Assembly (NCBI RefSeq): GCF_010078235.1
Contig: NZ_JAABOS010000002.1
Location: forward strand, 548,388 to 612,387
DNA from: Cognatundibacterium crateris
Lineage (GTDB): Bacteria; Pseudomonadota; Gammaproteobacteria; Burkholderiales; Burkholderiaceae_D
Direction: 5' to 3'
DNA length: 64,000 nt
Shown: positions 1,089-21,506 of the stretch, in pieces
Position numbering within the stretch: the first letter of the stretch is position 1
How the letters are laid out: each line of letters opens with the position of its first letter
Notes under the pieces: generated by a model
What the model was told of the DNA's origin: nothing
Seen by the model: the letters and a program-made list of their open reading frames with translations, nothing else
Databases searched by the model: none
Made by a program: the position numbers and the translations under genes

Positions 1089-2618
1089 TTATGCGTCCGC
1101 AAACATCTCATCTGCAACAGCTTCTGCCTTTTCAATCGCACTACCCACAATGCCGCTGCTCGCACCACTCTCGGCGATCAGATAGTTAGCATTTTCAAGA
1201 AATGCAAATGAACATGCATCCCACAAGTCCGGAGACGGTATTCCGTCAGCAGCCATGTCCGCCTTTTTCTCAATATAGCGACGCGCCTTCTCGTCGTAGT
1301 GATAAGGGATTCTTGATCCTTGTTTGATGAGCTTTTTGATTATTGACTTTGGAATATCTGAATTAATCCCGAAGCGCCCCTCCTGGACAGCACGAGCGAT
1401 GCCACAGCATGCCTGCGCACGCTGGTTGACATACCGCTCCTTGTATTCAGTCTTGAAGTTTGGCGAGCCCCAAAGCACCTTAACGAAGTTCGTAAAATCA
1501 TTCTTCTCAAGTTGCTTGATAACGCTCAGTCCAATGCCGCCGCCGTCGATAATCGCCGTAGAGTTGGACAGATTTCCCGACTGTACAATGATGTCGCCGT
1601 AAACGTCGCTTGGGTCTTTGGAGTTTGAGCAAAGAGGCACGCTGACTATCTGTACTCTGCGCGCATCGGCGCCGTATTCGCCATGGCCTATTACTTTTGC
1701 AGCAATCAGAGCGGTATCATCGCGATATCCGCCACCACCGATATCACTTAGCAGAAACCATCCATATTCCTCATCATCTCTAATGACCTGCTTTCCTACG
1801 CAAGCCTCAATAGATGCAGCACCGGTCAGGTACTTCCCTGCTAACTCGCAGAACTGGCCGACCACCTTGATTAACCATTCCTCGAGCGAGTATTGCGCTT
1901 TTTTCTCAATCAAGAACTCATCAGACACAAGCGGGGAATCTATAGAGCTAAAGCTTAGGGCATTCCATACACCGCCCTCCTCTTTCGATAAGGAGTGATG
2001 CTGGTCATAGAAAAAACCACTCTGACGAGTTGGCTGGGATGCGCATACCGCCCGATTTCGCGCATCTGTCATCGATCCAGATATAACACCCCAGTTTGCA
2101 TCCGGAATGCCGGAGCTCTCATCAAGCAGCCAAAGCAGCGCGTAATTGTGGGCACCGGCCAAGTTCTCCGGACTTCCTTTTGGCGCCGACCTGGGCGAGA
2201 TAAACCAATTTAACTTGAAGCCCTTGATATAGACCCGCTGGTTCTCAATCTCGAAGTAATCCGCAATCCAAGCATGCGCACCTTTTTGAATGTCAGTCTT
2301 ACGGGCTGCGAATTCCTTCCAAACGCCATCGGTAATGGTTTTTAACTTCGGAGCATGCAAAAATGTATTTGACGTGTAGTAGCAAAATAAGTGCCACAGC
2401 GCGATAACAGAATATCCGCCAGTCTTACCGGTACCATGTCCCGATGTGACGCTAGTTCTGGATCCAAACGGAGCAACAGACTCAAACATTTCGACTTGCT
2501 GAAAGGTTGGTGTCATGCCTATCACTTCAATGCAAAACCGCGTTATATCAACGCAATACCTCTCAACAAACGGGAGGTATCGCGGATCATCAAGAATACT
2601 TTTCTTTGCTACGGCCAT
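1089..2618 (-). CDS. Phage terminase large subunit
   Basis: This is the packaging motor ATPase and nuclease that translocates phage DNA into the prohead and cuts it (509 residues). The N-terminal ATPase has a Walker A, GHGTGKT, at residues 60-66 and a Walker B ending in Asp166-Glu167 (LLWLLDESSG). The C-terminal RNase H-like nuclease shows SDIGGGGYRDD around 291 (Asp292), a second acidic strand (AIIDGGG) and a late Asp (SPDLWDA). Both domains look intact and length is normal. The start overlaps the small-subunit stop as TAATG, so the two subunits are coupled. The portal and head genes expected next are not in the window. Confidence 0.92.
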   Translation of the reverse strand: MAVAKKSILDDPRYLPFVERYCVDITRFCIEVIGMTPTFQQVEMFESVAPFGSRTSVTSGHGTGKTGGYSVIALWHLFCYYTSNTFLHAPKLKTITDGVWKEFAARKTDIQKGAHAWIADYFEIENQRVYIKGFKLNWFISPRSAPKGSPENLAGAHNYALLWLLDESSGIPDANWGVISGSMTDARNRAVCASQPTRQSGFFYDQHHSLSKEEGGVWNALSFSSIDSPLVSDEFLIEKKAQYSLEEWLIKVVGQFCELAGKYLTGAASIEACVGKQVIRDDEEYGWFLLSDIGGGGYRDDTALIAAKVIGHGEYGADARRVQIVSVPLCSNSKDPSDVYGDIIVQSGNLSNSTAIIDGGGIGLSVIKQLEKNDFTNFVKVLWGSPNFKTEYKERYVNQRAQACCGIARAVQEGRFGINSDIPKSIIKKLIKQGSRIPYHYDEKARRYIEKKADMAADGIPSPDLWDACSFAFLENANYLIAESGASSGIVGSAIEKAEAVADEMFADA

Positions 2619-3334
2619 TACTTTTGATTCAATCCAAGTCGTTCATATCGTCCCGATGCAGCTGCGGCACTAGATTTAATCTCCGCCATTTTTTGGTCGT
2701 AGATTTCGTTCAGTTTTTCAGTACTAGTGACCGTCAACGCTACCTCAGCAACACTCTCAACTTTGTTTTTTAGACGCGTCAGATTTGGCGCCATGAATAC
2801 CAGGACGCGACTTTCATATGCGCCAGATAGTCCGCCCTCGACCATCAATGACTCCTGTAGATCCTGGCATCGCGTGAGCGTGTCGGAAAAGAGTTGATGG
2901 ACTAAATTACCTTTTTCATCTTTTTTCGATGCCCACTCATACAAAGTATCTCTACTTACGCCGATTTTCGACGCAAACCTTGTGATGGTAGGAAAAGTGT
3001 TTGTGATATGCCGCTTCTCGAAAACGCCAGGCTTAACTTCGACCTCAACCTCACGGTGAACCTCAATATTGAAGTAGTCCAGCATCATCTGGCAGTATTC
3101 TGGCTTGTATTTTGTCGGGCGCCATGGGTCAAGCACCTTTTCTGTCGACGTGCGCCGCTTAGTAGCTGGCTTACTATCTGGTTTTTTTATGGGCTTTTTT
3201 TCTTGCGATTTCGATTGAGTCGCAGATTTACTGGCTTTCGGCGTAGTTGATGACCGTTTAGGGGTAGCCTTATTTTGCGATTTTACAGGTACCCGGTCTT
3301 TAGAATCAGTCTCAGTAGTTTTCTTGATGGGCAT
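2618..3334 (-). CDS. Phage terminase small subunit
   Basis: This is the DNA-recognition partner of the terminase (238 residues). The first 75 residues are a Lys/Ser/Thr-rich disordered tail. A helix-turn-helix follows around residues 115-140 (ITRFASKIGVSRDTLYEWAS), then a helical oligomerisation region and GLSGAYESRVLVFMAPN, the pattern seen in P22 Gp3-like small terminases. It is directly upstream of and overlaps the large subunit. The ribosome-binding site is AGAGGT, seven bases before the ATG. The basic N-terminal extension is longer than usual for the family. Function is inferred from the fold pattern and position. Confidence 0.8.
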   Translation of the reverse strand: MPIKKTTETDSKDRVPVKSQNKATPKRSSTTPKASKSATQSKSQEKKPIKKPDSKPATKRRTSTEKVLDPWRPTKYKPEYCQMMLDYFNIEVHREVEVEVKPGVFEKRHITNTFPTITRFASKIGVSRDTLYEWASKKDEKGNLVHQLFSDTLTRCQDLQESLMVEGGLSGAYESRVLVFMAPNLTRLKNKVESVAEVALTVTSTEKLNEIYDQKMAEIKSSAAAASGRYERLGLNQK

Positions 3335-16975: not shown

Positions 16976-17416
16976 CTAAGGAGGCGCGAATACAGGGGTG
17001 ACCCGTGGGGCGCGTGGATTTCCGCCTCCAATATAGCGACCAAGCTGCGTTCCATCCGGCACACTGTTTTTTAGATACAGTGAGGTAATACTCAGAAACT
17101 GTCCGTTGGAGATGTATTTGAGCACCAGCAGCGCTGCTGGGTTGAGGTTTAGCCGAATTTTACTTTTATCGTGCTCTTCCGCAGAATAAACTGTCCCAGA
17201 CTGGCTCAATTTAAAGTAAACCATACTCGCTACTGTATGGTTGTTGTTTATGAGCCATTGGCCATGCCGTTTTTGTATATGCTCCGCCCCCCAGTAAGCA
17301 TTTCCCTGTTGCAACTTGATTGGCAGAGGGGCGACCACCCCGGGAATGATGTTACCGGGCATCACCCCGAAAGTTGTTGAACCATTAACTGTCCAGAAGC
17401 CCAATATGTCTGACAC
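16976..17416 (-). CDS. BECR-fold nuclease-like protein (toxin or moron candidate)
   Basis: A 146-residue protein read against the flanking recombination operon. The centre carries YWGAEHIQKRHG (residues about 41-52) and later a LKYISNGQFLSITSLYLK strand pair, which resemble the phage barnase-EndoU-ColicinE5/D-RelE (PBECR) nuclease domains often fused to phage head proteins. Here the domain stands alone. The start is GTG at 17416 with GGTGG upstream; the nearby ATG is out of frame. No immunity gene is recognisable beside it. It is divergent from a probable structured RNA at 17530-17731. The family call is a pattern match and is tentative. Confidence 0.5.
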   Translation of the reverse strand: MSDILGFWTVNGSTTFGVMPGNIIPGVVAPLPIKLQQGNAYWGAEHIQKRHGQWLINNNHTVASMVYFKLSQSGTVYSAEEHDKSKIRLNLNPAALLVLKYISNGQFLSITSLYLKNSVPDGTQLGRYIGGGNPRAPRVTPVFAPP

Positions 17417-17492
17417 ATGCCACCATACATAAGTTTATGTCGAAGTAGCAATTATCCTCCATGCTGAGGATATACGTACGATTTACTTTGAC

Positions 17493-17523
17493 TTGCTCAT
17501 TTTTGAGTAAGATGTGCTACACT
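17493..17523 (+). promoter_or_regulatory. Promoter of the candidate ncRNA
   Basis: TTGCTC and TGCTACACT (extended -10 at 17515-17523) are separated by 19 bp. The spacer is a little long, but the extended -10 and the absence of any coding frame downstream support a promoter for the RNA at about 17530. Confidence 0.45.
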
Positions 17524-17529
17524 ATGTTT

Positions 17530-17731
17530 GTCGTTGATGACGAAGCGTCCGCTGTAGTGGCAACAAGGTGAGGCGCATTTAGCAAAAGTGGGGCCATGTG
17601 TAGTACTCACTTGAACGTGGTGTTGGTTTTGATACCAACTCAGGATTCCACTAGCTTAGGCTATTTGGATACTGCGGGCGCCGTTCCGACAATTAACACT
17701 GAAAGCCGCCTCCGGGCGGCTTTCTTCATTT
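17530..17731 (+). ncRNA. Candidate structured non-coding RNA
   Basis: About 200 bases without a credible coding frame, between a promoter-like element and a strong terminator. Pairings visible in the sequence: TAGTGG (17555-17560) with CCACTA (17648-17653) closing a domain; AGGTGAG (17566-17572) with CTCACTT (17606-17612); hairpin GTTGGT/ACCAAC (17622-17639); hairpin TAGC/GCTA (17652-17663), which competes with the closing pair; and the terminator stem. The nested layout suggests a folded RNA. I do not recognise it as a known family. It is divergent from the BECR-like gene and lies in a prophage accessory spot. Confidence 0.5.
17701..17731 (+). terminator. Terminator of the candidate ncRNA
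   Basis: A ten-base-pair stem (GAAAGCCGCC/GGCGGCTTTC) with TCCG loop is followed by TTCATTT. It is very stable, and the pyrimidine tail is on the + strand only. Confidence 0.75.
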
Positions 17732-18031
17732 CAGCTATACCTTCCTCGTACTGAATAGGCACTTTCCTCGGGCTACCAGGCAGTCTCCTTGCAGATGCAC
17801 TATCTTGCAGTAGGACAACGTCGTCTGATGATAGACCGTTGGATAAAGCAGACTGCATCTAGTTTGGTTGCGCTGCGACTGGGATGTATGCGATCGCCAG
17901 ACAGTGCTCCCCAAGGCCGGCCAAAACCAAAGTTGCAAACCTAAATGCAGCGTAGTTCCACATTCCTAAATCTGATTTTACTGCAAAGTGTTATACAAAT
18001 AAATTTCCCAACGAAACGACAAGGCTAAGAG
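17732..18031. other. Intergenic stretch without supported genes
   Basis: About 300 bp between the ncRNA terminator and the promoter at 18032. Short frames exist on the minus strand, but they run through the terminator hairpin, have no ribosome-binding site, and match nothing I recognise. I see no repeat or RNA structure I would defend. Confidence 0.4.
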
Positions 18032-20749: not shown

Positions 20750-20823
20750 TGGAGGCGGGGGTCGGGATCGAACCGGCGTCTACGGCTTTGCAGGCCGCTG
20801 CATAACCACTTTGCTACCCCGCC
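20750..20823 (-). tRNA. tRNA-Cys (GCA)
   Basis: A full cloverleaf on the minus strand: acceptor GGCGGGG pairs near the 3' end with CCCCGCC, the T-loop is GGTTCGATCC, the anticodon loop reads CTGCAAA with GCA, and CCA is encoded. It is last in the tRNA-Gly(x6)-Cys operon and is the probable prophage attachment gene. Confidence 0.95.
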
Positions 20824-20905
20824 TTTGAGATACTTCACAGCTTACGCTGCGAAATACATCACTACTGCTCTGATAAAAACGGGGAACGTATTCCCCGATT
20901 TAATC

Positions 20906-20981
20906 TGGAGCGGGAAAAGAGTCTCGAACTCTCGACCTCAACCTTGGCAAGGTTGCGCTCTACCAACTGAGCTATTCCCGC
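20906..20981 (-). tRNA. tRNA-Gly (GCC), copy 1 of 6 (3'-most)
   Basis: A 76-base tRNA with encoded CCA. Acceptor GCGGGAA/TTCCCGC, D-arm AGCTCAGTTGGTAGAGC, anticodon GCC in CTTGCCAAG, T-arm GAGTTCGAGACTC. Identical to the other five copies. A small hairpin (GGGGAA/TTCCCC) separates it from tRNA-Cys. Confidence 0.96.
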
Positions 20982-21010
20982 ATTAACTGTTGCCTGCTGT
21001 GTGGGGAAAG

Positions 21011-21086
21011 TGGAGCGGGAAAAGAGTCTCGAACTCTCGACCTCAACCTTGGCAAGGTTGCGCTCTACCAACTGAGCTATTCCCGC
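21011..21086 (-). tRNA. tRNA-Gly (GCC), copy 2 of 6
   Basis: Identical to copy 1, with the same 29-bp spacer on both sides. Part of the 105-bp tandem repeat. Confidence 0.96.
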
Positions 21087-21115
21087 ATTAACTGTTGCCT
21101 GCTGTGTGGGGAAAG

Positions 21116-21191
21116 TGGAGCGGGAAAAGAGTCTCGAACTCTCGACCTCAACCTTGGCAAGGTTGCGCTCTACCAACTGAGCTATTCCCGC
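21116..21191 (-). tRNA. tRNA-Gly (GCC), copy 3 of 6
   Basis: Identical to copy 1, with encoded CCA. Part of the 105-bp tandem repeat. Confidence 0.96.
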
Positions 21192-21220
21192 ATTAACTGT
21201 TGCCTGCTGTGTGGGGAAAG

Positions 21221-21296
21221 TGGAGCGGGAAAAGAGTCTCGAACTCTCGACCTCAACCTTGGCAAGGTTGCGCTCTACCAACTGAGCTATTCCCGC
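21221..21296 (-). tRNA. tRNA-Gly (GCC), copy 4 of 6
   Basis: Identical to copy 1, with encoded CCA. Part of the 105-bp tandem repeat. Confidence 0.96.
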
Positions 21297-21325
21297 ATTA
21301 ACTGTTGCCTGCTGTGTGGGGAAAG

Positions 21326-21401
21326 TGGAGCGGGAAAAGAGTCTCGAACTCTCGACCTCAACCTTGGCAAGGTTGCGCTCTACCAACTGAGCTATTCCCG
21401 C
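21326..21401 (-). tRNA. tRNA-Gly (GCC), copy 5 of 6
   Basis: Identical to copy 1, with encoded CCA. Part of the 105-bp tandem repeat. Confidence 0.96.
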
Positions 21402-21430
21402 ATTAACTGTTGCCTGCTGTGTGGGGAAAG

Positions 21431-21506
21431 TGGAGCGGGAAAAGAGTCTCGAACTCTCGACCTCAACCTTGGCAAGGTTGCGCTCTACCAACTGAGCTAT
21501 TCCCGC
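21431..21506 (-). tRNA. tRNA-Gly (GCC), copy 6 of 6 (promoter-proximal)
   Basis: Identical to copy 1. Upstream sequence after ATTAAC diverges from the spacer, marking the repeat boundary. It lies 17 bp downstream of the -10 box of the operon promoter. Confidence 0.96.

What the first reader, a model, noticed from the sequence alone, without database searches (positions are those of the whole stretch)
17493..17731. Probable new structured RNA in the prophage accessory patch
About 200 non-coding bases with an extended -10 promoter, nested complementary segments (TAGTGG/CCACTA, AGGTGAG/CTCACTT, GTTGGT/ACCAAC) and a ten-base-pair terminator. I do not recognise the family. It lies outside the main phage operons, so it may act in lysogeny or on the host.
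Basis: partly seen in the sequence, partly recalled or inferred. Interest (0 to 1): 0.62.

Follow-up and report, generated by a model that had tools for sequence, protein, structure and literature searches.

The report
Structured RNA beside a toxin-like gene
A short folded RNA on this mobile element is one half of an unrecognised two-gene unit, also found on plasmids and in genomes of other bacteria, whose other half looks like a toxin that cuts RNA, so the RNA is probably its antidote.

Summary
The RNA is real, structured and conserved, but not a lone phage RNA. Window 17528-17727 (+) belongs to an RNA family with no Rfam 15 match: closing helix P1, hairpins A and B whose loops pair with each other, helix P3 holding hairpins C and D, a conserved CGnnCGn strand, a terminator. 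Over 12 distinct sequences 97.9% of cells pair and 29 of 35 pairs change on both sides. It lies head-to-head with a protein gene (16976-17416, -) that has no significant match in Pfam, PHROGs, NCBIfam or PADLOC; predicted folds of two homologues most resemble BECR toxins, at middling scores. Of 28 plasmids with the protein, 26 carry the RNA by blastn, and no plasmid RNA hit lacks the protein; Thiothrix makes 27, Vibrio is the exception. RNAs without an intact protein also occur. Best explanation: a toxin-antitoxin module in which the RNA neutralises the toxin, working like type III TA but divergently transcribed and without repeats. Toxicity and neutralisation are inferred, not shown. RNA family and linkage: near certain; mechanism: about 0.6.

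The parts
17528..17727 (+). structured non-coding RNA (P1 to terminator; ends estimated, no transcript data)
   Evidence: CM R1 match 17528-17695, 122 bits (the window is one of R1's nine training rows); z -3.45; covariation
17518..17523 (+). candidate extended -10 (TGC-TACACT) without a good -35
   Evidence: read by eye; scans do not support it
17528..17533 (+). P1, 5' strand (pairs with 17687-17692)
   Evidence: helix 1; coordinates
17539..17542 (+). conserved GACG, unpaired
   Evidence: GACG in 12 of 12 rows of A11
17547..17574 (+). hairpin A: GTC-CGCT / GGTG-(bulged A)-GGC
   Evidence: RNAalifold on the unguided alignment A10; helix 2
17557..17561 (+). kissing strand GTGGC in loop A (pairs with GCCAT 17593-17597)
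   Evidence: helix 3: 5 of 5 pairs with changes on both sides, 100% of cells paired
17588..17610 (+). hairpin B: GTGG / TCAC, loop holds GCCAT
   Evidence: helix 4: 4 of 4 pairs with changes on both sides
17613..17617 (+). P3, 5' strand GAACG (pairs with CGTTC 17682-17686)
   Evidence: helix 5; GAGCG/CGCTC in Shewanella, GAGTG/CACTC in L162
17622..17639 (+). hairpin C (GTTGGT/ACCAAC)
   Evidence: helix 6
17641..17674 (+). hairpin D (CAG/CTG at base)
   Evidence: helix 7
17675..17681 (+). conserved unpaired strand CGGGCGC (CGnnCGn in the family)
   Evidence: 12 of 12 rows of A11
17701..17724 (+). intrinsic terminator hairpin
16976..17416 (-). partner protein, 146 aa, GTG start, BECR-toxin-like predicted fold (putative toxin)
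   Evidence: AF2 and structure searches; homologue

Best explanation
The RNA and the divergent 146-aa gene form a toxin-antitoxin (addiction) module carried by mobile elements. SHOWN by computation: a conserved pseudoknotted RNA family; near-perfect linkage to the protein in sequenced plasmids; back-to-back gene order; predicted folds nearest to BECR toxins; loci where the RNA stands without an intact protein. INFERRED: the protein is an RNase toxin; the RNA is made in excess from its own promoter, folds into a compact scaffold (P1 closing, A-B loop kiss, P3/C/D junction presenting CGnnCGn and GACG) and binds and blocks the protein. If the element is lost, or host transcription is shut off, the RNA would decay first and free the toxin. 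In enterobacterial plasmids an HTH gene between the RNA and the protein, with repeated TGTCrCC half-sites over the divergent promoters, probably adds transcriptional control.
For: Covariation: 97.9% cells paired against 74.2% after shuffling, covariation score 0.816 against 0.326, slid controls at most 0.142; unguided RNAalifold on A10 gave 20 pairs, 14 with double changes. Held-out test: R1, built without Acinetobacter or Proteus sequences, finds the six Acinetobacter loci at E 4.1e-10 to 2.7e-6 and Proteus at 2.4e-14, with no match at E<=1 in the 34 unrelated viral loci of the same call. A blind hit, L191 (E 3.5e-6), has a further compensated loop kiss GGTGAC/GTCACT, 6/6, though R1 holds no kiss. 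Linkage: the RNA is in exactly the 12 enterobacterial and 14 Acinetobacter plasmid records that carry the protein, 26 of 28 protein records; also at the Thiothrix, Paraferrimonas and Shewanella protein loci. Fold: first Foldseek hit of both models is 7m5f_C (E 1.0e-3 and 5.2e-3), a BECR RNase-fold toxin in print (PMC8616854, passages). Asymmetry: RNA without protein in L002, L003 and L191; RNA kept beside a broken protein gene in L184; protein without a recognised RNA only in Vibrio L169 (L179 cannot be judged).
Against: No toxicity, binding or expression was tested. Fold matches are middling (VIA Z at most 6.7; Foldseek never below E 1e-3); after rank 4 the Foldseek list of the better model turns to unrelated OB-fold and other proteins; the listed relatives include ParE gyrase poisons, so even with this fold the target may not be RNA. 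The window's model has mean pLDDT 65, and each model rests on four sequences. In the profile search of PDB sequences 7m5f is only second (E 0.62), below a lipocalin (E 0.39). R1 does not find the RNA at the Vibrio protein locus. The window's promoter is weak. Three RNAs have no protein in their genomes, so the RNA may do something alone. The protein is rare: only the own genome of 147 relatives and of 369 class genomes. The kissing pairs are 5-7 bp and in 11 of 12 single sequences not beyond chance (17 to 122 of 200 shuffles; Vibrio 3 of 200); the case rests on covariation and constant position, and the strands counted were picked by eye.
Confidence: 0.6

Rival explanations
1. Type I-like control: the RNA represses the toxin gene by base-pairing with its mRNA instead of binding the protein.
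For: Divergent RNA/toxin pairs of type I (tisB/istR, shoB/ohsC) are known from recall; the gap between RNA start and toxin start is only about 110 bp in the window, and transcription starts are unknown, so a longer toxin leader would overlap the RNA in cis.
Against: Duplex energy between each RNA and its own toxin start was not clearly better than for shuffled RNA in the 7 loci that ran (z -1.6 to +1.9); the long perfect matches in L165 (27) and L168 (16) equal the stretch where the two query regions overlap in cis. A conserved loop-loop scaffold is more than a simple antisense RNA needs.
Confidence: 0.1
2. The pair is an RNP effector or defence system: the RNA is a cofactor, sensor or guide of the nuclease, for instance released or cut on phage infection.
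For: Prophage-like and plasmid homes; conserved unpaired GACG and CGnnCGn could be contact or sensing sites; type III systems can be both TA and anti-phage (PMC5086642, passages).
Against: No PADLOC match; no spacer-like variable part seen; RNAs occur alone. Partly compatible with the TA reading.
Confidence: 0.15
3. The protein is not a toxin but an RNA-binding regulator or plasmid-maintenance protein, and the RNA is its ligand or target.
For: Fold scores are middling; no catalytic assay; no family match.
Against: The top rows of both VIA lists are toxins; conserved HI..RH, KL, K and RY residues; gene broken while its RNA persists in L184.
Confidence: 0.12
4. A stand-alone prophage regulatory RNA acting in lysogeny or on the host.
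For: The window copy lies between ssb and an HTH_17/integrase region; L002, L003 and L191 have no partner.
Against: Linkage with the protein in 26 of 28 plasmid records by blastn and at the window, Paraferrimonas and Shewanella loci; in 50,697 phage records no match covers 80% of the query, and the 20 listed of 47 lie in the terminator part.
Confidence: 0.03

Closest known systems
Type III toxin-antitoxin systems (ToxIN, CptIN, TenpIN, AbiQ)
   Same: Non-coding pseudoknotted RNA paired with a toxin(-like) gene, intrinsic terminator after the RNA, plasmids and chromosomes (PMC5086642, passages).
   Different: RNA is one non-repetitive unit of about 160-205 nt before its terminator, not tandem repeats; RNA and protein genes are divergent, not one operon; the predicted fold is nearest to BECR toxins and no ToxN entry was listed (which excludes nothing).
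AbiF/RCd22 (PMC12373285, passages read)
   Same: Structured RNA associated with a toxic protein, shown there to neutralise it by direct binding; prophage-borne.
   Different: AbiF belongs to the Abi_2 family related to Cas13, and its gene is preceded by two repeated RNA motifs; here a BECR-like protein and a single divergent RNA.
BECR toxins (RelE, YoeB, BrnT, colicin E5, CdiA-CT BWH57 7m5f)
   Same: Nearest predicted fold; 7m5f is the first Foldseek hit of both models and is also listed, weakly, by the sequence profile.
   Different: Known members are held by protein antitoxins or immunity proteins, not by RNA (recalled); no significant sequence match.
Type I pairs with divergent small RNA (TisB/IstR, TimP/TimR)
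   Same: Small RNA and toxin genes side by side, divergent (TisB/IstR recalled; TimP/TimR seen in a listing).
   Different: Those toxins are small membrane proteins under antisense control (recalled); no such complementarity was found here.

Membership tests
Type III TA | Antitoxin RNA made of tandem repeats | tested here: not met
   TRF finds none in window 17400-17800; other loci were not run; one non-repeated fold
Type III TA | RNA and toxin in one operon, terminator between them | tested here: not met
   RNA and protein lie on opposite strands at the window and at the RNA-bearing protein loci read; definition from PMC5086642 passages
Type III TA | RNA inhibits the toxin by direct binding | not testable with these tools
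   needs pull-down and rescue
Type III TA | Toxin of the ToxN/AbiQ family | tested here: inconclusive
   no significant Pfam family; Foldseek/VIA lists hold BECR toxins; absence from a list excludes nothing
BECR toxin fold | BECR fold | tested here: inconclusive
   top VIA rows are BECR-type toxins, Z up to 6.7, below the level that proves a fold; PBECR1 Pfam E 0.048, 14.6 of 27.6 bits, for the L168 homologue
BECR toxin fold | RNase activity | not testable with these tools
   needs assay
Type I TA | antisense complementarity of RNA to toxin mRNA | tested here: inconclusive
   7 loci at the toxin start, z -1.6 to +1.9; the script stopped before the remaining loci, and transcription starts are unknown
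Any Rfam 15 family | match at gathering score | tested here: not met
   none on the RNA in the window or in 9 loci with the protein (only plasmid RNAI elsewhere); best sub-threshold BjrC1505 19.8 of 50 bits
AbiF/RCd22 | Abi_2 protein | tested here: not met
   no Abi_2 match in Pfam up to E 10 for two homologues

The most novel reading that the evidence does not exclude
A distinct class of RNA-antitoxin system: a single-copy, divergently transcribed kissing-loop RNA directly holds a BECR-fold RNase in check, spread by plasmids, transposons and prophages among several groups of Pseudomonadota, with an HTH gene added in enterobacterial plasmids.
Probability: 0.5. Interest if true: 0.82.

Novelty: new variant of a known kind. 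Interest (0 to 1): 0.74.

Why it matters
If right, it joins two things not known to me to go together: BECR-fold toxins, a very common toxin fold normally held by proteins, and an RNA antidote with a compact tertiary fold. It would break the rule that RNA antitoxins acting on proteins are repeat arrays in the toxin's operon, give an experimentally small unit (about 0.75 kb) for studying how an RNA blocks an RNase without being destroyed, and turn hypothetical genes on ColE1-like plasmids and on some carbapenemase-bearing Acinetobacter plasmids into probable addiction modules. It also adds an RNA family that Rfam-based annotation misses.

Tried and rejected
Rfam at gathering and relaxed thresholds: nothing credible. 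blastn with the window RNA matched only the terminator part in the 20 listed of 47 phage records and in 6 of 6 plasmid records; of 17 of 147 relatives genomes with a match, 14 match only in the terminator part, the rest are the own genome, G004 and G031. A 15-base pattern gave 120 viral stretches (capped), none a real homologue by nhmmer; the two-part pattern gave 20 stretches of which 3 were real, L142-L144. Two protein scans of viral contigs found no relative. My first alignment had L002 on the wrong strand, redone. My first skeleton (A8) used a wrong 3' strand for hairpin A in the window clade; the unguided fold corrected it (A11; 96.0% became 97.9%). Skeletons keep only helix strands and two conserved strands chosen by eye, and 4 of 12 rows are enterobacterial/Proteus relatives, so leans towards the structure; and L191 are less biased. 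The Vibrio fit (P1 AAGCG/CGCTT, kiss 7 bp) was made by eye; R1 does not support it, so it is not counted. Hairpin D of L191 was not confirmed: the arms tested would leave a two-base loop. L179 lacks upstream sequence, so the RNA there cannot be judged. No toxin remnant near the RNAs of L002/L003 (best E 12). No ToxN-type structure was among the listed fold matches, which excludes nothing. Papers: full-text searches (one search was for the CdiA structure); no listed row describes this pair, but lists were capped (20 of 116, 2 of 2, 15 of 23, 2 of 2, 12 of 1,557, 12 of 38), and preprints and subscription papers were not covered. I saw passages of PMC12373285, PMC5086642 and PMC8616854 and otherwise only listings.

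Full report
1. The observation. The RNA strand of 17524-17731 folds better than chance (z -3.45, 1 of 200 shuffles as good) and ends in a 10-bp terminator stem. It matches no Rfam 15 family at gathering score; the best sub-threshold hit reaches 19.8 of the 50 bits required. The promoter at the window copy is weak.

2. Homologues. Two relatives of the same genus carry the RNA at about 75% identity (L002 in G004, L003 in G031), both near genes that look like metal-resistance genes (names from recall, no family search). A scan of IMG/VR for the conserved 18-mer near the 3' end found an identical copy of the window's RNA (L144) and a distant relative (L142, L143), whose protein is that of Paraferrimonas haliotis (L177, 100%).

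3. The partner gene. At L142 an ORF on the opposite strand, upstream of the RNA, is 44% identical over 124 residues to the window ORF 16976-17416 (-), which sits at the same place. The two proteins have no significant match in Pfam, PHROGs, NCBIfam or PADLOC (best E 0.075). tblastn found the protein in 28 of 72,556 plasmid records (28 records also with two other queries) and in no phage record at E<=0.1. Profile searches found it in 1 of 147 relatives and 1 of 369 class genomes, each time only the window's own. Genome contigs added Shewanella (L178) and Enterobacter asburiae (L179).

4. The RNA goes with the protein. By motif the RNA was found divergently upstream of the protein in Thiothrix (L165) and Acinetobacter (L167, L168, L183-L186) and in Shewanella (L178). 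In the enterobacterial and Proteus plasmids it lies on the opposite strand further upstream; 8 of 8 loci read with upstream sequence have it (L162-L164, L166, L170-L173). In 6 of these 8 records an HTH gene is annotated between RNA and protein (not in L164 and L172), and the three tested are HTH_36. blastn with the enterobacterial RNA hits 12 plasmid records, the same 12 accessions as the enterobacterial protein hits; the Acinetobacter RNA hits 14 records, the same 14. With Thiothrix that is 27 of 28 protein records; the exception is Vibrio campbellii (L169), where R1 finds nothing at E<=1. Many of these records are near-identical copies; distinct kinds are about eight. Of 5,426 E. coli genomes, 2 carry most of the module, on plasmids.

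5. The structure. An unguided MAFFT alignment of nine RNAs (A10) gave a consensus of 20 pairs, 14 with changes on both sides: hairpin A with a bulged A, P3, C and D. With P1, hairpin B and the A-B loop kiss added, 12 distinct sequences give 97.9% paired cells (shuffled 74.2%), 29 of 35 pairs with double changes (shuffled mean 19.9), further pair types 60 (52.9; 7 of 500 shuffles reach it) and covariation 0.816 (0.326; slid at most 0.142). The kissing helix changes on both sides at 5 of 5 pairs (for example GTGGC/GCCAC, GTAAC/GTTAC, ACAAC/GTTGT, GCGAT/ATCGC) and pairs in every cell. Caution: these strands were picked by eye. Less biased tests: model R1, which lacks the kiss and had no Acinetobacter or Proteus sequence in training, finds Proteus at E 2.4e-14 and six Acinetobacter loci at 4.1e-10 to 2.7e-6 in a search of 52 loci including 34 unrelated viral ones, none of which match at E<=1. 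In genomes it found 3 of 43 in the genus (own, G004, G031), 2 of 300 in the order (own, G590) and 1 of 369 in the class (own). The new hit, G590/L191, was not used to build anything; it has the loop kiss GGTGAC/GTCACT (6/6), B ACTGGA/TCCAGT (6/6), P3 GAGCG/CGTTC (5/5) and C GCCTC/GAGGC (5/5) (strands picked by eye). Single-sequence tests of the kiss are not significant in 11 of 12.

6. The protein. Two AlphaFold2 models, from four sequences each: window (mean pLDDT 65, core about 78) and Paraferrimonas (pLDDT 83, pTM 0.80). Both rank 7m5f_C first in Foldseek (E 1.0e-3 and 5.2e-3); for the second model unrelated proteins follow after rank 4. VIA-align lists CdiA-CT domains, BrnT and RelE/YafQ/YoeB toxins, and for the window model colicin E5 domains, at Z about 4 to 6.7; ParE gyrase poisons appear too, and such Z values alone do not prove a fold. 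7m5f is described in print as a BECR RNase-superfamily fold (PMC8616854, passages). A sequence profile lists 7m5f at E 0.62, second to a lipocalin at 0.39, and PBECR1 matches one homologue at E 0.048; both are weak. Conserved polar residues: HI..RH, KL, K, RY.

7. Mechanism. RNAs without an intact protein exist (L002, L003 with no remnant nearby and no protein in the genomes; L191, genome search empty; L184 with the gene broken), whereas the only protein without a recognised RNA is in Vibrio. That asymmetry, with a toxin-like fold and mobile homes, suggests that the protein is harmful and the RNA protects. Antisense control is not supported by complementarity at the toxin start (7 loci), though transcription starts are unknown. 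I therefore favour protein-level neutralisation, as in type III systems and AbiF/RCd22, but two defining type III features, tandem repeats and co-transcription, were tested and are not met, so I do not file it as type III; it may work like one. Toxicity, binding and RNA decay are inferred.

8. Novelty. The RNA family is not in Rfam 15 and the protein is in none of the four libraries. Six full-text searches showed no row that describes the pair (capped lists); preprints and closed papers were not searched. I rate it a new variant of a known kind (RNA-antitoxin modules), possibly a new class.

Noticed in passing
window 20750-21506 (-): Six tRNA-Gly(gcc) genes in tandem at 105-base spacing, with equal Rfam scores, next to a tRNA-Cys close to the integrase gene of the element.
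   Followed up: partly
L162-L164, L166, L172, upstream of the RNA start: Repeated TGTCACC or TGTCGCC half-sites over the region between the RNA and the HTH/toxin genes, probably operators of the HTH protein.
   Followed up: no
L169 about 2150-3010: At the Vibrio protein locus a TTGACT promoter-like site, an RNA-like stretch and a terminator-like hairpin lie where the RNA should be, with a stretch CACTGCTCCCTACAAACGCCATTGCGCATAC present twice; R1 does not match.
   Followed up: partly
L020 5300-6517 (-): In G004 the RNA lies just downstream, on the same strand, of an HTH (HipB-like, from recall) gene and a metallophosphatase-like gene; no partner protein nearby.
   Followed up: no
L184, L186: Acinetobacter copies of the module lie on plasmids with predicted or annotated OXA beta-lactamases; in L184 the protein gene is broken while the RNA is kept.
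   Followed up: partly
L191 886-3386: The RNA of G590 lies near an integrase-like gene and a gene that resembles a plasmid replication initiator (names from recall), so this copy too may be on a mobile island.
   Followed up: no
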